Source: Streptococcaceae bacterium AM104-57 (GTDB lineage: Bacteria > Bacillota > Bacilli > Lactobacillales > Streptococcaceae). Taken from it: a stretch of DNA of 64,000 nucleotides. A model generated the notes under the pieces. That model saw only the letters and a list, made by a program, of their open reading frames with translations. It was not told where the DNA came from and ran no database searches. The DNA lies in contig JAQDPW010000009.1 in the NCBI GenBank assembly GCA_027659245.1, positions 8,850 through 72,849 of the forward strand. The letters are read 5' to 3'. Shown one piece after another: positions 1-58,340 of the stretch (position 1 is its first letter; each line of letters starts with the position of its first letter). The translations under genes were made by a program, and so were the position numbers.

Positions 1-1797
1 TCCTTTGAAAGTATAACAACTTAATTGACGTTTTTTAATAATTTTGGTCATTTTATCCTTAAACGCCTGATCATCTTCATAACCATCTACAGGAAAAATA
101 TCAACATAAATCCCCATATCTGAATCAATTCGAACATCCTCCTCCACTAGATAGGTTTGATTATCTTTGATCTTCATGAAAGGATAAACATAATTGATAT
201 TATTTTTATAAGACATGAGTTCATATCGTTCATCTGGATGTGCAATCAGATAATCTTGTAATTTTTCATAATCATCTCGAAGCATACAAATATCCATATC
301 GTCGTCCCAAGGAATAAAACCTTTATGACGAACTGCCCCAATTAGACTACCATAAGCTAAGAAATATTTGGCACCAATTTTCTGGCAAACTTCATGAATG
401 TACTCCATAATTCCTAATTCCATTTTTTGAATTTCGGAAATATCTGTTACTTCCTCATAGCGGATATTTTTTTCTTTCAAACAAATCGTTAAACCATAAC
501 CAATTACTAACCAGAAAATTATGTTGATAAAATTTGTGGAATAGATGATCTGACTTTCAAATAATTGACCAAATAGAATCCCAAAAAATAGAATTATAAT
601 TAATTTTTCATCATTTTTCTTAGTCACAACTAAATAAGTTATAAAACGTAAACTTACATAAGCGATTATGAGTATGAAAGAAATGAGTCCTAATATTCCA
701 GAACTTACAAAAATTGTAATAAATATATTATGGAAATTACCACCAATTAGTGAATTTTGAATTTCATATTTACTAAAATATTGGGTAAAATAATCAGAAA
801 CATTTCGAACACCATAACCAAATACTGGTTTCTCCATTCCCATTTTGATTGCATTTTTCCAAATGTAAGTACGACCACTAGGTGTTGTTTCAATCAAATG
901 AAGTTCAGTATTTTTCTTTTCAATGTCCGAGCCTATCTCAGAATAGGATTCACCCTTATTTAAATCAATGATAGTAGTTCTTCCAGATGAAATATAAATA
1001 GAGGTCAAGTAACTTAGACCAATATCAGCACTGGTAACCAAGGTAGCAGCAACTGCAAATGTAACAATCTTTTTAACAAGATTACCCCTAGAAACAAATA
1101 GGCAATATAATCCAAGCAATAATAGAACTGATAGAAGGGCCCCTCTACTTTGCATAGCCGCAAAATTTAGAAATTGAATTACATTATTTATCTTCAGATA
1201 AATCGAGTACTTACTTCCTTTGTGGATGAGGTATAAAGCAAACACAATACTAATATAAGAAAAAATAGCACTTGCATTTGGGTTAACAACTCCCCATAAA
1301 CGACCATTCATAACACCATAATAATAGGAGTGTTCTCCAATTTTAAATAATATTAAAATTCTAAATATTAAAAGAACAAAGGCAAATATAGCAGAGAAAA
1401 AAGAAACAAATTGAACCGTTCCAGCAATCAAGCGAATTAACTTCTTAAGATATTCTGAATTCACCATAGTAAATAGCAAAATGTAGGCTATCATAAAGAA
1501 GATTTCAATCATATTCCCAAGCAAGTGACCCGAACGATTAACCACTGTTGCTACTAGATGACTACCTGCTAAGAGTCCAAATAAACCTAGATATTTCTTA
1601 TCGATTTCTATTCGTCTCCAATTTAAAAATAAGGTTAAACAAATACAAAGAACAACAATTGCTGATAATCCTTTATAAATAGGACTTGTTACTTTATACA
1701 CTAGGGAACTCATGCTTAAAATCGAAATAAAAACAAATAGATATGAAATCCACAATTTTGATTTTTCAAAGCATTCATTCGTTTTTGAAAAATTCAT
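1..1797 (-). CDS. teichoic-acid-repeat polymerase fused to a LicD domain (partial)
   Basis: One uninterrupted frame runs from the ATG at 1797 to the window edge; I checked all 599 codons and found no stop. Residues 1-440 are a polytopic membrane protein of the O-antigen polymerase/ligase (Wzy/WaaL-like) type, with many hydrophobic segments and a large loop near residues 255-340. From about residue 445 a soluble LicD (phosphocholine/polyol-phosphate transferase) domain follows, with YGSLIGAVRHKGFIPWDDD around residues 481-499. By family and context it should polymerise undecaprenyl-linked teichoic-acid repeats at the membrane (TarP-like), with an extra phosphotransferase activity. SD AAAGGAG lies 6 nt before the ATG. 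It is last in the licD-GT2 operon. The C-terminus lies outside the window. The domain calls are fairly safe; substrate and coupling are inference. Confidence 0.85.
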   Translation of the reverse strand, partial: MNFSKTNECFEKSKLWISYLFVFISILSMSSLVYKVTSPIYKGLSAIVVLCICLTLFLNWRRIEIDKKYLGLFGLLAGSHLVATVVNRSGHLLGNMIEIFFMIAYILLFTMVNSEYLKKLIRLIAGTVQFVSFFSAIFAFVLLIFRILILFKIGEHSYYYGVMNGRLWGVVNPNASAIFSYISIVFALYLIHKGSKYSIYLKINNVIQFLNFAAMQSRGALLSVLLLLGLYCLFVSRGNLVKKIVTFAVAATLVTSADIGLSYLTSIYISSGRTTIIDLNKGESYSEIGSDIEKKNTELHLIETTPSGRTYIWKNAIKMGMEKPVFGYGVRNVSDYFTQYFSKYEIQNSLIGGNFHNIFITIFVSSGILGLISFILIIAYVSLRFITYLVVTKKNDEKLIIILFFGILFGQLFESQIIYSTNFINIIFWLVIGYGLTICLKEKNIRYEEVTDISEIQKMELGIMEYIHEVCQKIGAKYFLAYGSLIGAVRHKGFIPWDDDMDICMLRDDYEKLQDYLIAHPDERYELMSYKNNINYVYPFMKIKDNQTYLVEEDVRIDSDMGIYVDIFPVDGYEDDQAFKDKMTKIIKKRQLSCYTFKG

Positions 1798-1818
1798 CTT
1801 CAACTCCTTTAAATGACA

Positions 1819-2790
1819 TTATTGATTTAAACCGACGATTTGTCTATAGATCCATGGGGAAACAAGGAGGGACAAAACGGCTATTTTTCGAAAATTAGTA
1901 AAATAAGGATCTTTTAATATCTCAGATAAATGTTTAATAATCCACTTTCTCAACTTAATTTTTTCTGTTGGATATTGACTTGAATCTGTAAAGATTATTT
2001 TATCGTACACTGTGATATATGACCAACATTCTCTATTCACTAATTCAGTTTTTAGTTTTGGAAATATTTGAAAAACTTCAGAAATAATCATCTTATAGAC
2101 CTCTATGGTATCAAATACATGATCGTTGACAGAAGTTGTTGCACTTCCCTGACGATGATCATAATAGTAGATTGGTTTATCAACAAATACACTAGTACAT
2201 CTGGTTTTTAGTAAAACTTCTGTTAAAAACAAAGCATCTTCAGCCAAATGATAGTCTGTATTGAATGTAAAACTTGAAACAATCTCTCTTTTAAATAATT
2301 TTGCAACAGGGAAAAAAGAAGTTCTAGTTGTCGTCAATAATTCTCTCATCGTCTGCTCTGTCGACCACTTCTCTTCTTTTCCTGAAAAATCCGGTAATTC
2401 TGTAATTTGACCATTTTTTATATGATGGAGACGTGCTATACTAAACCCTATAGACTCGTCACTATCAACTACACTTATTAAAGTTTCCAAGTAATCTGGT
2501 GTAATAAAATCATCACTATCAATAAAAGTAATCCATTCTCCTCTTGAATGTTGAATACCTATATTTCTAGCATTCGAGACTCCTGCATTCTTAATATGAA
2601 AAACTTTGATATTTTCATTTTTAGATGCCAAATGATCGCACAAGGCACCACTCTGATCTGTCGAACCATCATCAATAAGAAGCAATTCAAAATTGGTATA
2701 GGTCTGCTTTAAGATTGACTCAACACATCGTTCCAAATAAGCTTCTACATTATAGACTGGAACAATAACGCTAATTTTTTCTTTCATCAT
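1819..2790 (-). CDS. family 2 glycosyltransferase
   Basis: A 323-residue GT2 (GT-A fold) enzyme. It has the N-terminal SVIVPVYNVEAYL, the nucleotide-binding DDGSTD at residues 40-45 and the metal-binding DSDD at 91-94. It probably adds one sugar of the teichoic-acid repeat on the cytoplasmic face of the membrane. Its ATG overlaps the stop of the upstream licD gene (ATGA, 2787-2790), so the two are translationally coupled. A second ATG immediately follows the first and the choice does not matter. Pneumococci carry two glycosyltransferase genes at the equivalent teichoic-acid locus; here I see one, although more may lie beyond the window edge. The sugar donor and acceptor cannot be read from the sequence. 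Confidence 0.9.
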   Translation of the reverse strand: MMKEKISVIVPVYNVEAYLERCVESILKQTYTNFELLLIDDGSTDQSGALCDHLASKNENIKVFHIKNAGVSNARNIGIQHSRGEWITFIDSDDFITPDYLETLISVVDSDESIGFSIARLHHIKNGQITELPDFSGKEEKWSTEQTMRELLTTTRTSFFPVAKLFKREIVSSFTFNTDYHLAEDALFLTEVLLKTRCTSVFVDKPIYYYDHRQGSATTSVNDHVFDTIEVYKMIISEVFQIFPKLKTELVNRECWSYITVYDKIIFTDSSQYPTEKIKLRKWIIKHLSEILKDPYFTNFRKIAVLSLLVSPWIYRQIVGLNQ

Positions 2791-3623
2791 GCTCCATATT
2801 CTCCCTTATATTCAGTGTAACTCTTATCCATATCTGCTATAAGGGCATCGTGGTGAGGCACTTGCTTGTCTGCCGGCGGTGGTGTCATGTAGTCACCAAA
2901 AGCTGTACTGAGATAGGCATCATAACCAACTGGAATAGGCATTTCTGTTCCTTCGAATGGTAGGAAAATATTATCTTCAAAGGCTTGAATTGGATATTTC
3001 TTTTTCATGTAGCCTGGACCTGAGCATAATTCCGTGATACCATCACTTTCTGCTAGACCATACTTGGTCATTTCTTTTTCAGCCTTTTTCCAGATACGAT
3101 AACGAAGGGATTTAGGAGTCAATCCTAATAAAATCGTGCTGCCCCATTTCATGAGGGCTCCATGTTTTTCTGGAATAGTTTGTGCACAGAAGAGGGAATA
3201 AATCAAAGCCCAACGCACCTGTTTCTTACGTTCAGCTGTATTTTTAGGGTAGTAATCCAAGGGAAGAACATCCAAGGCCAAGCCGTGTGGGAGGTCCAAA
3301 TCTTGTTGGTAAGGCTTGATGCAAGTCGTTTTTTTGTCTCGAATAGTGATAAAGAGATTGCGGTCAACAAAGTCTCTATCACTTTTTGATAGGAAGTAAC
3401 GCTCGTCCGCATAACGAGGCCATAGCTCTGCTAATTTTTCATAATCCTTGCGAGGCATGAAGAAGTCTAAATCATCATCCCAAGGGATAAAACCTTTATT
3501 TCGTAGAGCTCCAATAGCTCCTCCACCACACAAATAACAGAGTAAATCGTGTTCTTTACAAAAGGCGACAAAATATTCAGCCATCTCTAAGCTACGAGCT
3601 TGAATTGCCTTTAAATCACTCAT
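2787..3623 (-). CDS. licD3: LicD-family phosphotransferase
   Basis: A 278-residue LicD-family protein with the hallmark stretch from about residue 33 to 53 (GGG, GALRNKGFIPWDDDLD) that binds metal and substrate. LicD proteins move phosphocholine or polyol-phosphate onto teichoic-acid precursors in the cytoplasm. Position and neighbours (psr and the aro operon upstream, glycosyltransferase and polymerase downstream) match the pneumococcal gene often called licD3. SD GAGAGGAAGAG precedes the ATG. It is the first gene of its transcription unit: an extended -10 promoter lies at 3661-3669 and a terminator separates it from psr. The symbol is based on synteny and is less certain than the family. 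Confidence 0.88.
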   Translation of the reverse strand: MSDLKAIQARSLEMAEYFVAFCKEHDLLCYLCGGGAIGALRNKGFIPWDDDLDFFMPRKDYEKLAELWPRYADERYFLSKSDRDFVDRNLFITIRDKKTTCIKPYQQDLDLPHGLALDVLPLDYYPKNTAERKKQVRWALIYSLFCAQTIPEKHGALMKWGSTILLGLTPKSLRYRIWKKAEKEMTKYGLAESDGITELCSGPGYMKKKYPIQAFEDNIFLPFEGTEMPIPVGYDAYLSTAFGDYMTPPPADKQVPHHDALIADMDKSYTEYKGEYGA

Positions 3624-3654
3624 CTTATTCTCTTCCTCTCCTGATAGAATACAT

Positions 3655-3669
3655 CATTCTATTATACCA
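3655..3669 (-). promoter_or_regulatory. extended -10 promoter of the licD-GT2-polymerase operon
   Basis: Minus-strand TGG-TATAAT (TATAAT at 3666-3661) with a start point expected about 6 nt downstream. No good -35 is visible, as expected for an extended -10 promoter. It gives the teichoic-acid genes transcription independent of psr. Confidence 0.6.
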
Positions 3670-3705
3670 TAAAAAAGCCCTAAAAATCCATCAGATACCA
3701 AGAAA

Positions 3706-3753
3706 AATCAAAGCCCGAGACACCTGTTATCATAGGTATTCCAAGCTCTGATT
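3706..3753 (-). terminator. terminator after psr
   Basis: Minus-strand hairpin with outer arms AATCAGAGC / GCTTTGATT and an inner ACCT/AGGT pair, running into TTTTTC. It ends the aro-psr operon. Confidence 0.6.
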
Positions 3754-3765
3754 CGTTTTTTCAGT

Positions 3766-5076
3766 TTACCTAAATCCCATTTGGGCCAGTTTATTCTGGT
3801 AAGCTTTTTGGTCCACTCGAAGGGATTGGCCTCCATAGACATCATAGTCATCCACCCAGTCTCCGAGTTCTGGGACTGTCAGTTTTTCAATCCCATTTTG
3901 AGCTCCTTCAAGAACAGATAGGCCATTGGTCAATAAGAAGGTATAGGGTAGGTTTGTTGAGGTCATCGCAAAAACTTTCCCTAGAGCTTCTGAACCAGTG
4001 AACAATTTTGTCGGGTCTTTGATTTGTTGTAGAACCGCGGTCATAACCTGTTGTTGACGACGAGTTCGTCCATAATCACCTTCATCATCGTCACGGAAAC
4101 GAGCATAGTTAAGAAGAGTTGAACCGTTCATTTGCTGTTTACCGGCTCGAATAGTTTGAGTAGGTGACTCAGTTGCCGTTGCGTGCAAGTCATCACCCAC
4201 TGTCGCTTCTGTGACTGGAACTCCATTTAAAGTTGAAAATTGGGCATCGATGGTTACACCATCAGGAAAAAGGGTATCTATTGCAGTTGCAAAGGCTTGG
4301 AAATCAACGAGCGCATAATATTTGATATCCAGATCAAAATTATCCTTGAGGACTTTACGAACCATTTCGGCTCCTTGTTTACCTTCTTGTTCCCCTAATT
4401 CGTAAGCCAAATTTAATTTGTGATCAGCTTGTTTCTGACCATCGATAACCTGACTATATCCATCAATATAGACCAAGTTATCACGCATAAAGCTAACAAG
4501 CTTCAATTTTTTATCTTTACCACTTACATTTAAAACCATGACAGAGTCCGTCCGAGTTTCCGAACTATCTTGTCCGATACGTCCATCCGTACCCAAAATA
4601 AGAATATTAACCCCATCACGCGTATCTTGTCCATTGAAGACTTCAACTTGAGCCGCTTTGGCATCCTTAGGATTATTAGAGTTAGCAGACTGGAAGCCCT
4701 TTAGGAACATGAAGATCATTCCTACTGCTACACAAAGCAATATCATCCCTAACCAAGCAAATAAGCGTTTAAAACGAAAACCTCTTTTTTTCTTTTGCTT
4801 CTTAGCTTTTGGAATCTTCGTTTCCAGTTGATCTCCACTACTACGGCGACTAGAACGACTACGATTAGCATAGGTTGGCAGGTCGATACCAGAGTCTGAA
4901 AGAAGTTGTTCTTTGGCTTCTGGATTGAAAACTTCTGCTGAATCTTTTTGACCTTCTATCTTGGCTTGTAAAAAGGCAAATTCTCTCTTTTCTTTCTCAT
5001 TCAAATAATGAATGTTTTTCAAAAGATAGTCATATCTCAGTTTTTCATGATGTGTCAAAGGATTCTCTCTAGTCAT
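3766..5076 (-). CDS. psr: LytR-CpsA-Psr (LCP) cell-wall polymer ligase
   Basis: A 436-residue LCP protein: a long charged cytoplasmic N-terminus (about 1-100, rich in Lys/Arg near the membrane), one transmembrane helix at about 105-125, then the extracellular LCP domain from about 150. Visible LCP features are ILGTDGR, the metal-binding TRTDSVMV, SFMRDNLV and the arginine-rich YARFRDDDEGDYGRTRRQQQ. LCP enzymes transfer lipid-linked teichoic acid or capsule to peptidoglycan. Its ATG overlaps the pheA stop by 4 bp, so it is the last gene of the aro operon. It sits next to teichoic-acid genes, which fits the role. Which LCP paralogue this is (Psr rather than LytR/Cps2A) is taken from synteny. 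Confidence 0.88.
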   Translation of the reverse strand: MTRENPLTHHEKLRYDYLLKNIHYLNEKEKREFAFLQAKIEGQKDSAEVFNPEAKEQLLSDSGIDLPTYANRSRSSRRSSGDQLETKIPKAKKQKKKRGFRFKRLFAWLGMILLCVAVGMIFMFLKGFQSANSNNPKDAKAAQVEVFNGQDTRDGVNILILGTDGRIGQDSSETRTDSVMVLNVSGKDKKLKLVSFMRDNLVYIDGYSQVIDGQKQADHKLNLAYELGEQEGKQGAEMVRKVLKDNFDLDIKYYALVDFQAFATAIDTLFPDGVTIDAQFSTLNGVPVTEATVGDDLHATATESPTQTIRAGKQQMNGSTLLNYARFRDDDEGDYGRTRRQQQVMTAVLQQIKDPTKLFTGSEALGKVFAMTSTNLPYTFLLTNGLSVLEGAQNGIEKLTVPELGDWVDDYDVYGGQSLRVDQKAYQNKLAQMGFR

Positions 5077-5917
5077 AGGTTCTCCTTCCCTTTATCTTGT
5101 ATGGTATAGATAGGGTAAGCTCCCAGTACTTTATACTGGATTCCAATTGTTTCTAATTCTTCTTGAGCAAAATGAACCAATTCTTTATCTCTATAGTCAA
5201 CATCAATGATAAAGAAGTATTCTCCAAGTGCAGTTTTAAGGGGACGGCTCTCAATCTTGGTCAAATCGATTCCTCGCCAAGCAAAGGTCGAGAGTGCCTT
5301 GTAAAGGGCACCAGGTAAATTGTCTGGCAAGGTAACTGCTAGGCTCATTTTTTCAGTTGCATCCTGTAAAGGAATCTGTGGCAACTCTGCCCCCAACACC
5401 CAAAAACGAGTGAAATTGGCTTCCATTTCTTGGATATCTTCCGCAATCAATTCTAGACCATATTCTTCAGCAGAGCTTCTTGGAGCAATTGCCGCAATAG
5501 GCTGATCTGGATGCTCGGAAACATAGCGCGCAGCGTATGCTGTACTGGCAGTGACTTCTAGTTGAGCATTTGGAAAATGTTCATCGATAAATTTCTTTCC
5601 TTGAGCCAAGGCCTGCGGATGAGAAAAGATTTTTTCAATTCTTGACTGCCCAACAACTGCCATCAACTGTTGATGAATTGGCTGCACAATCTCCGCCACT
5701 GCTTGAATACGAGCTTGATGAAAAAGATAGTCTAAGGTCTCATGAACACTACCTTCAATGGAATTTTCAACTGGCACTACTGAATAGTCTACCAATCCCT
5801 GTTCATAGGCTTTGATAACGTCCGTAATATTTGAAAAAGGCTCTAGTTCCTCATGAGGAAAAGCCGTCTGCACCACATGGTGCGAAAAAGATCCTTTAGG
5901 ACCTAGATAGGCAATTT

Positions 5918-5921
<4 letters not shown>
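5073..5921 (-). CDS. pheA: prephenate dehydratase
   Basis: A 282-residue monofunctional prephenate dehydratase, making phenylpyruvate from prephenate in phenylalanine synthesis. The catalytic domain covers about 1-180: GPKGSFSH at 7-14, PVENSIEGSV, and NFTRFWVL containing the conserved TRF motif. A C-terminal ACT domain follows with the ESRP sequence that binds phenylalanine, so feedback inhibition is expected. No chorismate mutase domain is present. ATGA overlaps join it to aroK upstream and psr downstream, so translation is coupled along the operon. Confidence 0.95.
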
Positions 5922-8098
<2,177 letters not shown>

Positions 8099-8109
8099 AA
8101 TTGTTCTCC

Positions 8110-9213
8110 TTATTTAATAACGACTGTGTAATTCGTATTTTCTGTAATGACTTGCTCAGCACGTTTTAAATCCTGAGCATTCTTAAAGGAAATTTGCAGA
8201 ATACCGTGAATATCTTCACGGTTTTCCTCATTGATATGGATATTGACCAAAGAAGTTCCTCTTAGCAATTCCAAGATGCGTAAAATCACATCTTCTTCAT
8301 CGGGAACATCTACATAGAGGTCAAATGAGCTATCTACTCCACCACGTTTATGGATTTCCATAGCCTGGCGTTGCTCACGCGCTTGGTTGAAAAAGCTCCA
8401 TATTTGGTTTTCATCCCCCTTACTGATAGCTTGTCCAATCTCGTCCAAACGGCCCTTGAAATCCTCGATGCGTTCAATAATGGTCTCCCGATTGGATAAG
8501 AGGATAGAAGTCCACATACCCGGCTCACTTTCGGCGATTCGAGTCATATCTCGAAAACCACCTGCTGCAAATCGTCGTGCCATCTCATGCTCTTCAGCAT
8601 AGTTGGCAGTTTGTTCCATCAAACCTGATGCCAAGATATGAGGAAAATGACTAATCTGAGAAGTCACTCGGTCATGTTCTTCAGCATCGATTTCAATAAA
8701 ACGTGCATGAAGTCCCGACAGCAAGTCTTTCATTTCTTCAAGCGTATCTGGAGTCGTTAGGCTCGAAGGCGTAAAGATATAGTAGGCATTTTCAAAAAGA
8801 TTAACATCTGCAGAGGCAGCTCCTGTCTTGTGACTTCCTGCCATGGGATGGGCCCCCACAAAGCGAACAGACTTATCAGCAAAATACTTCTCAGCTGTAG
8901 CCACGATAGCTGACTTGGTCGATCCAGCATCAGAAATAATGACACCATCTTTCAAGTCCAAGTTGGCCAATTCCTTAATAAAGGCAATAGTTTGCTTGAT
9001 TGGCAGGGTAAGAATGATGAAGTCTGCAAGTGGAGCAAAACTGGCAAAGTCATCCGTCGCTCGGTCAATCATTCCTCTCTCCAAGGCAATATCTCTAGAC
9101 GCTTGACTACGATTGTATCCTAAAATTTCATAATCAGGATGATCCCGCTTGATTCCTAGTGCCATGGAAGCACCAATCAAACCTAGTCCTGCAATATAGA
9201 TGGTTTTTGCCAT
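8110..9213 (-). CDS. tyrA: prephenate dehydrogenase
   Basis: A 367-residue prephenate dehydrogenase giving 4-hydroxyphenylpyruvate for tyrosine. The Rossmann NAD-binding [12 protein letters not shown] is at about residues 9-20; [10 protein letters not shown] and [12 protein letters not shown] carry the substrate-site residues, including the catalytic His. A C-terminal ACT domain (about 295-367) suggests tyrosine feedback. It begins 9 bp downstream of aroC. Confidence 0.95.
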
Positions 9214-40042: not shown

Positions 40043-40108
40043 GGAAATTAACCCATATTAAAAAAGTTGTAATTGACTGATAATTTAAGAAAATGTGCAG
40101 ATGTTTTT

Positions 40109-41890
40109 TTAGTTATTTTCGCTGTTTTTATTAGAGAATTGACTTTGATAAAGGTCATAATAGAAACCTTTTGCAGCTAAGAGACTTTCATGATTTCCTT
40201 GTTCGATAATCTGCCCATCTTTCAGCACTAAAATTTTGTCAGCTTCCTGAATAGTCGAAAGTCGATGGGCGATAACAAAACTTGTTCTCCCCTTCATCAA
40301 ACGTTTCATGGCCTTTTGAATCAAGAGTTCTAAACGAGTATCGACTGATGAGGTCGCTTCGTCCAAAATTAAGATTTTTGGATCAGCCAAGAGAGCACGC
40401 GCGATAGTTAACAACTGCTTCTGACCAAGAGAAATATTACTTGACTCTTGGTTCATTTCCATGTTGTAGCCACCAGGAAGGGTGCGGATAAAGTGGTCAA
40501 CATTAGCCGCCTTAGCCGCTTCAACGATTTCCTCATCCGTTGCCTCAAGATTTCCAAAGCGAAGATTTTCCTTGATACTGCCTTCATAGAGCCAGGCATC
40601 CTGTAGGACCATCCCAAACTGACGACGGTAGTCCTGACGAGACAGGTCACGAATATCTTGCCCATCCACTAAAATGGCACCAGCTGTCACATCGTAAAAA
40701 CGCATAAGAAGGTTAATCAAGGTTGTTTTACCTGCTCCAGTAGGTCCTACGATAGCCACCATCTCTCCAGGTTTAACATCTAGGTTGAAATTGCGAATCA
40801 ATGGTTTGTTTTCCACGTATTGGAAATCGACATTCTTGAAGCTAACTTGACCTGTCAATAGTGCTAGTTCTTTCACTTCAGCAGCTTGGACTTCTTCTTG
40901 TTCATCCAAAACTTCAAAGACACGGTCAAGCGAAGACTTGGCACTTTGCATTTGTCCTGCTAATTGAGTGATATTTTGGATCGGTTGACTGACTTGCCAC
41001 ACATACTGAACGAAAGCCTGCATATTACCAATGGTTAAGCGGCCTGCGATAACCTGCAATCCACCTAATACTGCAACAATTAAGTAAGTTAAATCAGACA
41101 CGATATGAAGGGCAGGCATCATCAAACCTGAGATAAAGCTAGCCTTAAAACCAACCTGTTGCAATTCATCTGTAATAGCCGCAAATTCCTGCTGGGAGTT
41201 TTCTTCACGGCCAAAAAGTTTTAGAACATTGAAACCTGTCAAGTTTTCCTGTACAAATCCATTCATGCGTCCCAATATAGCTGCCTGCTGTTTAAAGTAC
41301 GGCTGCGAACGATTCAGAATCGTTTTAGCACCAAAATAAGTAATCGGAATCGACAAGATAACAATGATAGCCAGCTGAAGATTTAGATAGAGGACCATTC
41401 CCATAACAAAAATAATGGTAAAGACTGCATTAACAATCTGTAAGAAGGATTGTTGGAGTGCATTAGATACGGTCTCTACATCACTAGTAAAACGTCCCAG
41501 TAAATCTCCAAATTGGTGCTTGTCAAAGTAAGACACAGGGATGCGGTTGATTTTTTCGCTCATTTCATTTCGCAAATCCTGTATCATAGACTGGACAGCA
41601 TTGGTCATGAAATAGTTTGAGTAGTAAGAACCCAACTCATAAAAAAGGCCACGCAAGAGATAGATCGCCAGAATCACTGCGATATAGCTGGTATTAATCC
41701 CTGCTCCTGCAACACCATTTGCCATGGCAAGGAGGTTGCTGGTTAACTCAGTGATAGCAAGTCCCAATACGAAAGGCTCGATAACACTCATAATGACGCT
41801 AACTATTTTCAAGAAGACTGCAAAGAAAACAGAGAAACGGTAGGCTTTTAAATAGCTCCATAGACGAGCTAGACTAGATTGTTGTTTCAT
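40109..41890 (-). CDS. heterodimeric ABC exporter subunit, canonical-Glu half
   Basis: A 593-residue half-transporter: membrane domain (about 1-320, six helices) and ATPase. Walker A is GPTGAGKTT, Walker B ILILDEATSSVD with the catalytic Glu intact, but the signature reads ISLGQKQ in place of LSGGQ. Its partner upstream has the reverse defects, the pattern of asymmetric exporters such as TM287/288, BmrCD and LmrCD. It probably exports drugs or lipids. It starts 10 bp after its partner. Confidence 0.88.
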   Translation of the reverse strand: MKQQSSLARLWSYLKAYRFSVFFAVFLKIVSVIMSVIEPFVLGLAITELTSNLLAMANGVAGAGINTSYIAVILAIYLLRGLFYELGSYYSNYFMTNAVQSMIQDLRNEMSEKINRIPVSYFDKHQFGDLLGRFTSDVETVSNALQQSFLQIVNAVFTIIFVMGMVLYLNLQLAIIVILSIPITYFGAKTILNRSQPYFKQQAAILGRMNGFVQENLTGFNVLKLFGREENSQQEFAAITDELQQVGFKASFISGLMMPALHIVSDLTYLIVAVLGGLQVIAGRLTIGNMQAFVQYVWQVSQPIQNITQLAGQMQSAKSSLDRVFEVLDEQEEVQAAEVKELALLTGQVSFKNVDFQYVENKPLIRNFNLDVKPGEMVAIVGPTGAGKTTLINLLMRFYDVTAGAILVDGQDIRDLSRQDYRRQFGMVLQDAWLYEGSIKENLRFGNLEATDEEIVEAAKAANVDHFIRTLPGGYNMEMNQESSNISLGQKQLLTIARALLADPKILILDEATSSVDTRLELLIQKAMKRLMKGRTSFVIAHRLSTIQEADKILVLKDGQIIEQGNHESLLAAKGFYYDLYQSQFSNKNSENN

Positions 41891-41900
41891 CCTTTACCCC

Positions 41901-43637
41901 CTATTCTTCTGTCAGAGACGCATTTTTCAACTGCGACTCAGCAATTTCTCGATAGATGTCATTAGTTTCCATCAATTCTTCATGACGCCCACGACCAACG
42001 ATTTCGCCTTTATCAAGCACAATAATCTGGTCAGCATCCATGATAGTTCCAACACGTTGCGCAACAATCAATACTGTAGCATCTTGCGTCACTTCCTTGA
42101 GACGACGGCGCAAGATAGCATCTGTACGGTAGTCCAAGGCTGAGAAAGAATCATCAAAAATGTAGATATCTGGACCCTTGATGACTGCTCGGGCAATCGA
42201 CAAGCGTTGTTTCTGACCACCTGATAGGTTGCTTCCCCCTTCAGCCAGATGAGTCGCAAAACCTTCTTCTCGACTTTCGATAAAGTCTTTGGCTTGGGCT
42301 ACATCAGCTGCTTGGTGCAAGTCCTCATGACTGGCATCTTCTTTCCCGTAACGGAGATTGTCTGCGATAGTCCCAGTAAAGAGCAAGGCTTTTTGTGGAA
42401 TAAATCCAATTTTCTGGCGGAGTGATTTGAGACGGTAATCCCGGACATCGACACCATCGACCTTAATTTTCCCCAGTGTAACATCATAAAAACGAGGAAT
42501 TAACTGAACCAGAGTAGACTTACCTGACCCAGTCGAACCGATAAAAGCAATGGTTTCTCCCGGTTTAGCAGTAAAGGAAATATTATGCAAAACAGGGCTT
42601 TCCGTTTCACCAGGATAAGCAAAGGTCACATTATCAAATTCTAGATAACCATGGGTTTCTGTTTCTTGAATTCCGTCCTCATTTGGATCAATGGAAATCG
42701 GCATATCCATGATTTCCTTCAAGCGTTCACTGGATACGGCCGTTCTAGGATACATGGTAAAGAGGTTTGACAAGAAAAGGAAGGACAAGAGAGCGTGGAA
42801 ACTATACTCGATAAAGGCCACCAAATCCCCAATCTGCAAACTTCCCTGTTTGAGAGGATCCAAAGCAAACCAAACGATAGCTACAATCATGGCAATAATG
42901 ATTTGCACAAAAAGCGGCTCTGTCAAACCAGTCAATTTGAACAAACGATTTGAATTATCCGCATAGATCGCATTTTTCTCTTCGAAACGGTTTTCTTGGA
43001 AGTCTTCACGAGCAAAGGCACGAATCACTCGTAGCCCCATCAAATTTTCACGGACATACTGGTTAATCTTATCCAAAGTTTTCTGTTGTTTTTCAGATAA
43101 GGGACGCGTTTTCACCGCCACATAAAGGACTACTACAGCTAGAAAAGGAACGGAAAAAGCTACAATCCAAGCTAGTGAAGGACTGGTCAAGAAAATCATG
43201 AGAATACTCGACAGCATCATCATGGGAGTGATAACACCCAACTTAAGCGTTTGTTCCGCAAACTGCATGAGGACAAAGGCATCACTGGTAATACGAGTGA
43301 CTAGTGAAGACACACCAATTTGCTCGTACTCATGATGAGAATACTCTTGCAGCTTAGCATAGACATCATCCCGCATGTCCTTAACCATATTGGTGGTCAA
43401 TTTACTAGCCGCATAAGATAGCACGACCCGTCCAAATGTTCCCAAGACGATAATAACCAACATTACGATAGCCCAAAAATAGAGTTTATCCTTATCGCCT
43501 TGGTTGATTCCTTGGTCAATCATGCGAGCCAGAACAGTTGGTAGACCTAGATTGACAATGACAAAGAAAATAGCTCCGAGGAAGTCTAATAGTAGCCACT
43601 TGGGATAACGTTTAAGATAAGACCAAATATAAAGCAT
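41901..43637 (-). CDS. heterodimeric ABC exporter subunit, degenerate-site half
   Basis: A 578-residue half-transporter with six membrane helices (about 1-310) and an ATPase. Walker A GSTGSGKST and signature LSGGQKQRLSIA are canonical, but Walker B reads IYIFDDS, so the catalytic Glu is Asp. I set the start at 43637 (AAGGAG 5 nt upstream); an in-frame start 17 codons earlier has no SD. In pneumococcus, as I recall it, lytC occupies the place between dpr and tpiA; here this exporter pair does. Confidence 0.88.
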   Translation of the reverse strand: MLYIWSYLKRYPKWLLLDFLGAIFFVIVNLGLPTVLARMIDQGINQGDKDKLYFWAIVMLVIIVLGTFGRVVLSYAASKLTTNMVKDMRDDVYAKLQEYSHHEYEQIGVSSLVTRITSDAFVLMQFAEQTLKLGVITPMMMLSSILMIFLTSPSLAWIVAFSVPFLAVVVLYVAVKTRPLSEKQQKTLDKINQYVRENLMGLRVIRAFAREDFQENRFEEKNAIYADNSNRLFKLTGLTEPLFVQIIIAMIVAIVWFALDPLKQGSLQIGDLVAFIEYSFHALLSFLFLSNLFTMYPRTAVSSERLKEIMDMPISIDPNEDGIQETETHGYLEFDNVTFAYPGETESPVLHNISFTAKPGETIAFIGSTGSGKSTLVQLIPRFYDVTLGKIKVDGVDVRDYRLKSLRQKIGFIPQKALLFTGTIADNLRYGKEDASHEDLHQAADVAQAKDFIESREEGFATHLAEGGSNLSGGQKQRLSIARAVIKGPDIYIFDDSFSALDYRTDAILRRRLKEVTQDATVLIVAQRVGTIMDADQIIVLDKGEIVGRGRHEELMETNDIYREIAESQLKNASLTEE

Positions 43638-43674
43638 AATTCTCCTTTCTTTTTCATTCAAAATGCAGAAAAGA

Positions 43675-43746
43675 GCGTGCTTACGCACGCCTTTTTACTA
43701 AAAAGAAGACAGGCAGTCTTAACCTCGAGAGAGGGAACTGTCTGTC
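43675..43746 (-). terminator. two hairpins after tpiA
   Basis: First a terminator with arms GACAGACAGT / ACTGCCTGTC followed by TTCTTTTT (43746-43696), then a second hairpin GCGTGC/GCACGC (43690-43675) with T-runs on both sides. They separate tpiA from the ABC exporter. Confidence 0.65.
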
Positions 43747-43761
43747 TCAGATATTTGAGGC

Positions 43762-44520
43762 TTATTTTACAAAGTTAAGCAATGCCAAGAAGCTTTCTGG
43801 ATCAAGTGATGCACCACCTACAAGAGCTCCGTCAACGTCTGGACAAGCCATGTATTCAGCAACGTTTTCAGGTTTAACTGAACCACCGTATTGAACACGT
43901 ACTTTATCAGCAACTTCTTGACCGAAGTCAGCAGCTACAACGTCACGAACAACTTTACACATTTTTTGTGCGTCATCTTGTGAAGCTGATTTACCAGTAC
44001 CGATAGCCCAGATTGGCTCATAAGCGATAACTGTTGAAGCGACTTGTTCTGCAGTCAATCCAGCAAGAGCAGCTGAAACTTGAGCACCTACGAATTCTGC
44101 TGCTTTACCAGCTTCGTAAGTTTCAAGTGACTCACCACAACAGATGATTGGAAGCATACCGTTAGCAAAGATTGCTTTTGCTTTCTTGTTGATGTCTTCG
44201 TCTGTTTCGTGGAAGTAGTCACGACGTTCTGAGTGACCGATAACAACGTAGTCAGTACCGATTTCTTTCAAAACTTGTGGGCTAGTTTCACCAGTGAAAG
44301 CACCAGCATTTTCAAAGTAGCAGTTTTGAGCAGCAACTTTAAGGTTTGAACCTTTAGCAGCAGCAAGAACAGTTGTCAAGTCAAGAGCAGGAGCTGCGAT
44401 ACCTGCTTCAACAAGGTCTGATGAAGGAAGTTTTGATGCTACAGCTTCAACGAATGCTTTTGCTTCTTCTGGGTTTTTGTTCATTTTCCAGTTACCAGCG
44501 ATAAATGGTTTACGTGACAT
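43762..44520 (-). CDS. tpiA: triosephosphate isomerase
   Basis: A 252-residue TIM-barrel glycolytic enzyme. AGNWKMN holds Asn/Lys of the active site, IGHSERR the catalytic His, [11 protein letters not shown] the catalytic Glu and loop 6, GGASL the phosphate-binding end. I place the start at 44520 (AGAGG 8 nt upstream) rather than seven codons earlier. Monocistronic, with a good promoter. Confidence 0.96.
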
Positions 44521-56978: not shown

Positions 56979-58169
56979 TTAATCAACTAATTCATCAATC
57001 ATACTATGTTTCAGTGGTAAACTACACATCACTAAAAGGAAAATAAAGGAAGATTGAATCCAAAAGAGAGCCAAATCAAAAATTCCGTGCACAGCTACTA
57101 CTGTCAAGAAAGAGAGGTAAAGTCCAAGGATAGGACGCTTACTAGGTACTTGACTCATATCAATCAACATTCGTACCGGAGTGGAAGAAGCAATCCCCAA
57201 GAGAACGGTACCGACAACTCCATAACTCAAAATCGTATCTATATAGATACTGTGGGCATGTTCATGATAAGGTGCTCCAATACGAGGGAAAGAGTGCATG
57301 TAGGTTAGCGGTCCTTCACCCCAGAATGGATTTTGTTTAAACAAGGCCATCCCAGCATTCCAAATAGAAACACGCTCTTCCATAGATGAATCTAAGGTTC
57401 CCATTCGAACACCCAAATCACTCGAAAATAGAAAAGCTAAACCAACCCCAAAAACTCCAACACTAAGCCAGAAAGCACGCCAGTTCTTAATAGTTGTGAA
57501 GAGATAAATAATCGCTCCAAAGATAATGGCTGGAAAAGCTGTACGATTCTGCGTAAAGTTTAAACCGAATAAATTAGCAAATATGGCAATCATAGAAAAA
57601 ATTCGTAACCACCTTAACTTAGTTGTGCTAATCAGATAAAAACCAATCATGATACAGAAACAACAGATAATTCCATAGTAATTGGGATTAAAGAAGGCAA
57701 CCTCCGCTCGATTTTGATGCCAAACCTGCATCCGTGGTGAGAGGAAGGTATAATCAAATTTCTTTACAATTTGGAAATGTTCCAAAGCTGCAAAGGCTGC
57801 TGCAAAGACACTTAAGGCTAATATTCCTTCAATCGTCAACCTGAAAAATTTAGGAGTCAACTGGGATTGATAGTAGTAAAAGAAGATGGCAAACAGAAAC
57901 ATGGCCACCGAAGAAACTACTCCCATCACATTTTGTGCCAGAAGAGAAATTGCAGTGCTATAAGCAATAAAAAAGAGCAAGACAGGGTGTTGAGACAAAC
58001 GTTTCAAGATCCCCTTCATCTCCCCAGTATATACTAACCAAAGTAAGTAAGAGATAAAAATAATAACAAAAAGATAAAAAGGAAGAAAAATACTCAGAAT
58101 AACTCCTAAAAGAAGTCCTTCTTGTTTCGATAAACTTTTTAACTTTTCAATGACACCTATTGATTTCAC
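56979..58169 (-). CDS. O-antigen ligase/polymerase-like membrane protein
   Basis: A 396-residue polytopic protein of the Wzy_C (O-antigen ligase) family, about 10-12 membrane helices. The large loop near residues 255-320 holds RVSIWNAGMALFKQNPFWGEG and the conserved HEHAHSIYIDTILSYGVVG pattern (first and last pieces only). I set a GTG start at 58169, 6 nt after AAAGGA; a GTG nine codons upstream lacks an SD. In mitis streptococci such genes handle surface polysaccharide; the substrate is unknown. No glycan genes adjoin it. Confidence 0.8.
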   Translation of the reverse strand: MKSIGVIEKLKSLSKQEGLLLGVILSIFLPFYLFVIIFISYLLWLVYTGEMKGILKRLSQHPVLLFFIAYSTAISLLAQNVMGVVSSVAMFLFAIFFYYYQSQLTPKFFRLTIEGILALSVFAAAFAALEHFQIVKKFDYTFLSPRMQVWHQNRAEVAFFNPNYYGIICCFCIMIGFYLISTTKLRWLRIFSMIAIFANLFGLNFTQNRTAFPAIIFGAIIYLFTTIKNWRAFWLSVGVFGVGLAFLFSSDLGVRMGTLDSSMEERVSIWNAGMALFKQNPFWGEGPLTYMHSFPRIGAPYHEHAHSIYIDTILSYGVVGTVLLGIASSTPVRMLIDMSQVPSKRPILGLYLSFLTVVAVHGIFDLALFWIQSSFIFLLVMCSLPLKHSMIDELVD

Positions 58170-58340
58170 AACAGATCCTTTCCTTCTGAATATCACATTC
58201 AGATAAATAAGTTATTAAAACATTTTACCACTTTTCAAAGGATTTGAAAACCACTTTGCCTCTATCATCCTAACTAAAACTGGGTAAAATTTTATAGTTA
58301 GCTAAGATTACTTGAAAATTGCTATCCCTTTTTTAAAAAT

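What the first reader, a model, noticed from the sequence alone, without database searches (positions are those of the whole stretch)
1..1797. O-antigen-polymerase-like membrane protein fused in frame to a LicD domain
I read 599 codons without a stop from 1797 to the edge: a Wzy-like polymerase part (about 1-440) then a LicD domain (WDDDMD near 496-501). A separate licD gene lies in the same operon, so the cluster has two LicD active sites, one tied to the polymerase. Pneumococcal TarP is, as I recall, a stand-alone polymerase; fused variants may exist in S. oralis/mitis, so novelty is not certain. A polymerase carrying its own phosphotransferase could decorate each repeat as it is added or change the linkage.
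Basis: partly seen in the sequence, partly recalled or inferred. Interest (0 to 1): 0.72.

Follow-up and report, generated by a model that had tools for sequence, protein, structure and literature searches.

The report
Teichoic-acid polymerase fused to choline transferase
Many mouth streptococci appear to build their choline-bearing cell-wall polymer with one membrane protein that carries the polymer-joining enzyme and a choline-attaching enzyme in a single chain, where the pneumococcus uses separate proteins, and the joined form seems to have arisen more than once.

Summary
Window 1-1797 (-) is the first 599 codons of a conserved gene. The 99% identical copy in L001 is 718 aa: a Wzy_C (PF04932) polymerase half and a full LicD half. 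It belongs to the published licD4/lic4 type, so the fusion itself is not new. The calls add:

(1) The polymerase half is no TarP variant (TarP: PF14296). Of 284 Streptococcus species genomes, 38 carry this fusion, 17 a divergent second fusion and 43 TarP+TarQ, with no overlap.

(2) The two fused polymerase halves are not one clade (p-AU 4e-62): the join was made at least twice, or the polymerase half was swapped.

(3) The locus has three LicD modules, not two.

(4) A WaaL-like part precedes an FKRP-like phosphotransferase. Topology puts LicD inside and the polymerase loop outside, so decoration precedes export.

(5) A genome labelled subsp. dentisani carries the set, although that subspecies was published as apparently lacking phosphocholine.

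Enzyme activities are inferred, not shown.

The parts
1..1797 (-). 5' part (599 of about 718 codons) of the licD4-type fused gene, running off the window edge
   Evidence: open frame; full-length 718-aa copy in L001; Pfam Wzy_C + LicD
478..1797 (-). polymerase half, codons 1-440: 11-12 predicted membrane helices, WaaL-like fold
727..732 (-). invariant His-Asn (residues 356-357) in the large loop predicted outside; with invariant S217-R218 and R309 the candidate polymerase-site residues
   Evidence: invariant in 39 aligned fusions, 30 of type 1 and 9 of type 2; role as active site recalled from WaaL work, not tested
1..477 (-). LicD half, codons 441-599 (domain continues to about 718 beyond the edge)
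292..309 (-). WDDDMD, residues 497-502, LicD metal/catalytic motif (role recalled)
   Evidence: W497, D498-D500 and D502 invariant in 57 aligned proteins including stand-alone LicDs
1819..2790 (-). family-2 glycosyltransferase of the same operon
   Evidence: Glycos_transf_2 E 3e-39; same place in 38 of 38 type-1 loci, split into two frames in one of them, L182
2787..3623 (-). LicD3, separate LicD gene (ribitol-phosphate transferase by published assignment)
   Evidence: LicD E 2e-53; full-length copies at 91% identity or more in 92 of 284 Streptococcus genomes; assignment in PMC4649388 section 9
3766..5076 (-). LytR-CpsA-Psr-type gene (psr) at the left border of the lic cluster
   Evidence: sequence read; the name is recalled, no family search was run on it
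56979..58196 (-). second Wzy_C protein, TacL-like lipoteichoic-acid ligase candidate (name by family, size and recall)
   Evidence: Wzy_C E 3.5e-17; 73-99.5% identical to a Wzy_C gene in each of the 13 Streptococcus genomes, fused and TarP types alike

Best explanation
The gene is a licD4-type teichoic-acid enzyme with two jobs in one chain. The N-terminal half is the repeat-unit polymerase of the choline teichoic acid: a WaaL-fold, inverting Wzy_C enzyme whose active site faces outward. It stands in for the pneumococcal pair TarP/TarQ. The C-terminal half sits directly under the membrane on the inner face. There it moves phosphocholine (most likely) from CDP-choline onto a GalNAc of the undecaprenyl-linked repeat before TacF flips it. 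Joining the halves keeps decoration, export and polymerisation at one spot and in fixed ratio; it does not decorate during polymerisation. Shown by computation: architecture, conservation, selection, replacement of TarP/TarQ, fold match. Inferred: which side each half faces, donor, acceptor, linkage, coupling.
Confidence: 0.74

Rival explanations
1. The fused membrane half is a ligase (to glycolipid or peptidoglycan) or a capsule polymerase, and another unseen protein polymerises the teichoic acid.
For: Wzy_C covers ligases as well as polymerases; TacL is Wzy_C (PMC5727136 passages). Nearest stand-alone relatives (G390, G538) lie among glycosyltransferase and flippase-like genes that I read, without a family search, as capsule-like clusters.
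Against: A TacL-like ligase is already present in the window and in 8 of 8 fused Streptococcus genomes tested, and TacL rows are a separate clade. The fusion and TarP/TarQ exclude each other in 98 of 98 genomes that carry one of them. The gene lies in the teichoic-acid operon in 38 of 38 type-1 loci.
Confidence: 0.1
2. The join is only a stop-codon loss between two neighbouring, overlapping genes; it has no mechanistic effect beyond equal amounts of both enzymes.
For: Unfused Wzy-LicD pairs in the same order, overlapping by 4 bp in G482. G245 has an unfused polymerase. The linker is only about four residues in the model.
Against: Fused polymerase halves are not one clade (still rejected without three long rows), so the join was made or re-made more than once and is found whole in 55 of 284 genomes. 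Chance alone explains this poorly, but drift is not excluded.
Confidence: 0.35
3. The fused LicD transfers something other than phosphocholine (ribitol-P or another phospho-alcohol), and LicD5 is the phosphocholine transferase.
For: Closest solved structure is FKRP, one entry of which holds CDP-ribitol by its title. Type-1 loci have LicD5 as a second, complete LicD.
Against: Fused LicD lies on the LicD1/LicD2/LicD5 side, away from the ribitol-P transferase LicD3. LicA is present in 38 of 38 type-1 genomes. For Uo5 the authors assign phosphocholine transfer to LicD4.
Confidence: 0.2
4. Assembly artefact or split gene at the window edge.
For: One draft relative (G070/L171) has the gene in three frames.
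Against: 38 of 284 genomes, including single-contig ones, have it whole; dN/dS well below 1 in both halves.
Confidence: 0.01

Closest known systems
LicD4 (Sor_0762), lic4 cluster of Streptococcus oralis Uo5
   Same: Same gene order as described (LicD3, glycosyltransferase, LicD4, LicD-like gene) and a C-terminal LicD region about one-third identical to LicD1/LicD2 (35 and 32% printed, PMC4649388 section 9; 30-33% for the type-1 LicD here).
   Different: Uo5 matches my type 2 (its follower Sor_0763 has 'very limited homology' to LicD, like the 236-aa gene; its glycosyltransferase figure is nearer type 2, 40%, than type 1, 32%). The window is type 1: 28-32% identical to type 2 overall, a polymerase half from another Wzy_C clade, and a complete LicD5. 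In what I saw of the papers the N-terminal half is not called the polymerase; Denapaite 2012 could not be read.
TarP/TarQ of S. pneumoniae
   Same: Same pathway slot, same position after LicD3 and glycosyltransferases, role in polymerising teichoic-acid precursors (PMC5448163 passages).
   Different: TarP is PF14296 without LicD; the fusion is PF04932 with LicD and has no TarQ partner in 55 of 55 loci.
TacL and WaaL ligases
   Same: Wzy_C family and WaaL fold.
   Different: TacL rows are a separate clade (100/100); a TacL-like gene is present besides the fusion; no LicD.
LicD1/LicD2 of S. pneumoniae and FKRP
   Same: LicD fold, DDxD motif, CDP-alcohol phosphotransferase family.
   Different: Stand-alone, not joined to a polymerase.
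Adjacent unfused Wzy_C + LicD genes in other Lactobacillales (G482, G502, G591)
   Same: Same two families in the same order.
   Different: Two genes; their polymerase branches near type 2 (92/91), not type 1.

Membership tests
LicD4-type (lic4) enzyme | membrane N-terminal half plus C-terminal LicD domain in one protein | tested here: met
LicD4-type (lic4) enzyme | position after LicD3 and one glycosyltransferase, before a further LicD-like gene | tested here: met
   38 of 38 type-1 and 17 of 17 type-2 loci; one type-1 glycosyltransferase is in two frames (L182) and one type-2 LicD3 is shortened (G129, L230)
LicD4-type (lic4) enzyme | polymerase half of one origin with the Uo5-type enzyme (type 2 as stand-in) | tested here: not met
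   one clade of fused halves rejected, p-AU 4e-62 and 3e-35
LicD4-type (lic4) enzyme | LicD half of one origin with the Uo5-type enzyme (type 2 as stand-in) | tested here: inconclusive
   type-2 LicD is sister to LicD5 (95/93) but one clade not rejected, p-AU 0.097
TarP/TarQ polymerase | PF14296 polymerase | tested here: not met
   PF04932 instead; blastp with TarP not significant (E 0.98)
TarP/TarQ polymerase | TarQ partner gene | tested here: not met
   0 of 55 fused loci; TarQ found only in the 43 TarP genomes of 284
Wzy_C / WaaL superfamily | Wzy_C profile over cut-off and WaaL fold | tested here: met
Wzy_C / WaaL superfamily | glycosyl transfer from undecaprenyl diphosphate with inversion | not testable with these tools
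   inferred from family and from Uo5 beta links
LicD phosphocholine transferase | full LicD domain with DDxD motif | tested here: met
LicD phosphocholine transferase | CDP-choline supply (LicA, LicB, LicC) in the same genome | tested here: inconclusive
   LicA in 38 of 38 type-1 genomes; LicA and LicC by Pfam and a LicB-like gene in G214; the window's own assembly is not held
LicD phosphocholine transferase | phosphocholine transfer activity | not testable with these tools
   no assay
TacL lipoteichoic-acid ligase | membership of the TacL clade | tested here: not met
   TacL rows form a separate clade, 100/100

The most novel reading that the evidence does not exclude
The join is a membrane-spanning checkpoint. 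The cytoplasmic LicD half takes over the task of the missing TarQ and licenses or times the outside polymerase, so that only decorated repeats are chained. Selection for this built the same two-enzyme chain twice from different polymerases.
Probability: 0.2. Interest if true: 0.85.

Novelty: new variant of a known kind. Interest (0 to 1): 0.6.

Why it matters
It proposes the teichoic-acid polymerase of choline-using streptococci that lack TarP/TarQ (named type-1 loci include S. infantis, S. taonis, S. oralis and S. mitis strains). It offers a simple reason for the published beta instead of alpha links in S. oralis Uo5, namely replacement by an inverting polymerase family. The repeated joining of polymerase and decorator makes the question of how decoration is coupled to polymerisation directly testable in commensals.

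Tried and rejected
Assembly artefact: rejected (38 of 284 genomes whole; dN/dS).

'766-aa fusions' (seven genomes first noted) were a false lead: they are a TacF-like gene and the next LicD read through a stop in one frame (my reading).

Fusions among distant LicDs: of the 53 non-streptococcal loci (L025-L077), 51 have no stop-to-stop frame with more than 250 residues before the LicD motif. L066 is a glycosyltransferase-like plus LicD frame. L055's long frame looks to me like read-through of non-coding sequence. I saw no Wzy-LicD fusion among them.

One origin of the fusion: rejected for the polymerase half, not for the LicD half (p-AU 0.097). Long branches are present in both trees, and the tool warned of them. 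In the tree without three long rows the type-1 clade itself falls to 77/82 and the stand-alone G390 protein is not resolved from G429, so whether G390 branched before or after the type-1 join is open.

Structure: the first AF2 model (alignment A1) was too weak to use (pLDDT 49); the second is fair. Of 57 rows in the second alignment only 20 cover the membrane half.

Literature searches for such a fusion gave none that calls the N-terminal half a polymerase in the listings, passages and sections I saw. The key 2012 paper (Denapaite et al.) is not held, so I cannot say it is unpublished. One search was largely a repeat.

Full report
What is there. Window 1-1797 (-) is an open frame of 599 codons that runs off the edge. 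It matches Wzy_C at residues 206-375 and LicD at 471-590. The 99% identical copy in L001 (Streptococcus sp. HMSC034E03) is 718 aa and matches the whole LicD profile, 1-227 of 227. In L001 the order is psr-like gene, LicD3, family-2 glycosyltransferase, fusion, a 270-aa LicD (called LicD5 here), Pce-like choline-binding esterase, prfB- and ftsE-like genes (the names Pce, prfB, ftsE and psr are recalled from the sequences). So relatives have three LicD modules at this locus: LicD3, the fused one and LicD5.

How common it is. A search of 284 Streptococcus species genomes found LicD3 in full length (91% identity or more) in 92 and in part in 6. I fetched the region after LicD3 for all 98 and sorted it by open frames. 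38 have the window's fusion (type 1), 17 a second, divergent fusion of 715-717 aa followed by a 235-240-aa LicD-like gene (type 2; one of them, G129, with a shortened LicD3), and 41 have TarP/TarQ (36 with full LicD3, 5 with a LicD3 fragment). Two are other: G070 (fusion in three frames) and G245 (unfused Wzy_C). TarP matches 44 genomes, one of them weakly (G057, 28% over 75 residues, dropped), leaving 43. TarQ matches the same 43. A LicA-like choline kinase at E 1e-40 is in 102. Set comparison: type 1, type 2 and TarP do not overlap; all 98 genomes with one of them have LicA; 4 LicA genomes have none (G245, G070, and G019 and G057, whose kinase is only 45% identical). Each of the 98 thus has one candidate polymerase in this slot, and the fusion fills the slot of TarP/TarQ. 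(TarP, TarQ, TacF, LicD1 and LicD2 are names I gave by gene order, family and recall; no pneumococcal record was fetched.)

Not a TarP variant. TarP is PF14296; the fused half is PF04932. Blastp between them is not significant (E 0.98). The fused loci have no TarQ (0 of 55). The lipoteichoic-acid ligase TacL is also Wzy_C (PMC5727136 passages), but a TacL-like gene lies in the window at 56979-58196. It is 73-99.5% identical to a gene in 13 of 13 Streptococcus genomes tested, 8 of them with a fusion, and the TacL rows form their own clade.

Origin. In the Wzy_C tree the type-1 half joins stand-alone polymerases from two genomes of another family of the order (G390, G538; 100/99), and the type-2 half joins the stand-alone G245 protein (99/99) and then unfused neighbours (92/91). 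Holding all fused halves together costs 173 log units, p-AU 4e-62. Without three long rows it still costs 127, p-AU 3e-35, though there the type-1 clade itself is only 77/82 and G390 is not resolved from G429. In the LicD tree type-2 LicD is sister to LicD5 (95/93), not to the type-1 fused LicD, but one clade is not rejected (p-AU 0.097). Hence either two joins, or one join followed by a swap of the polymerase half. The likely raw material is visible: Wzy_C followed directly by LicD as two genes in G502, G591 and G482, with a 4-bp overlap in G482.

Mechanism. Shown: one conserved chain with both folds, in a choline-teichoic-acid operon, replacing TarP/TarQ. Inferred: LicD half adds phosphocholine; LicD5 adds a second one; the Wzy_C half chains repeats with inversion. 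The last point fits print: pneumococcal precursor chains are all alpha and WaaL turns alpha to beta (PMC5727136 passages), while in S. oralis Uo5 all AATGal are beta (PMC4649388 passages). [quoted passage not shown]

What was known. LicD4 with its LicD-like C-terminus is in PMC4649388 (section 9 read whole; other passages). Divergent lic4 regions in S. mitis DD26 and S. oralis DD16, DD17, DD20 and DD21 are in PMC4863584 (passages); DD26, DD16 and DD21 are type-1 loci here (L015, L011, L009). PMC6722419 section 16 (read whole) reports Sor_0761-0763 homologues in all six subsp. oralis strains but not in tigurinus or dentisani, and infers that these two appear to lack phosphocholine, except for two tigurinus strains. 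It also lists S. mitis SK564 as lacking five pneumococcal genes (SP_1273, SP_1274, SP_1364-SP_1366). I did not see which dentisani strains that study used, so this is a prediction to test, not a disproof.

Mobility of the locus. Against L001, window bins of 250 bp are 96-100% identical in 14 of 14 bins up to 3500, 92% in the next, and 78-95% in 16 of 16 bins from 3751 to 7750. Genome searches agree for G214: 99% for 1-3692, 88-91% for 5100-9200; farther away, at 40100-44500, it is 94%, much like the other genomes searched. The nearest genome by shared words, G001, carries type 2 in the same place. The lic cassette has thus probably moved recently between species.

Noticed in passing
window 1-3700 against 3751-7750: The lic cassette is 96-100% identical to HMSC034E03 up to 3500, but the flank is only 78-95% identical: probably a recent recombination between species with a border near 3.6 kb.
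   Followed up: partly
window 751-1250 (polymerase codons about 183-349): In S. taonis (L002) this stretch is 78-80% identical while the other 12 of 14 bins up to 3500 are 96-100%: a mosaic within the polymerase half covering its large predicted outside loop.
   Followed up: no
L231-L235 (G220, G234, G241, G096, G066), L247, L248: TarP-type loci in which LicD3 is only an N-terminal fragment (121-184-aa frames) or absent, followed by a 403-404-aa gene; the L247 copy is a CDP-glycerol glycerophosphotransferase by Pfam: a possible different backbone phospho-alcohol.
   Followed up: partly
L181 (G245): The one followed choline-teichoic-acid genome with neither fusion nor TarP: stand-alone 456-aa Wzy_C, a 238-aa degenerate LicD-like gene, a TacF-like fragment and a whole TacF-like frame on the other strand.
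   Followed up: partly
   Followed up: no
downstream of the fusion in relatives: A Pce-like phosphocholine esterase (tblastn with 330 N-terminal residues, within the fetched stretch of at most about 9.5 kb) lies near the fusion in 32 of 38 type-1 and 15 of 17 type-2 loci but only 5 of 41 TarP-type loci: writer and eraser of choline side by side.
   Followed up: no
L066 (Ruminococcaceae MAG): A 1092-codon frame with glycosyltransferase-like sequence followed by a C-terminal LicD domain, another kind of LicD fusion (read by eye, no family search).
   Followed up: no
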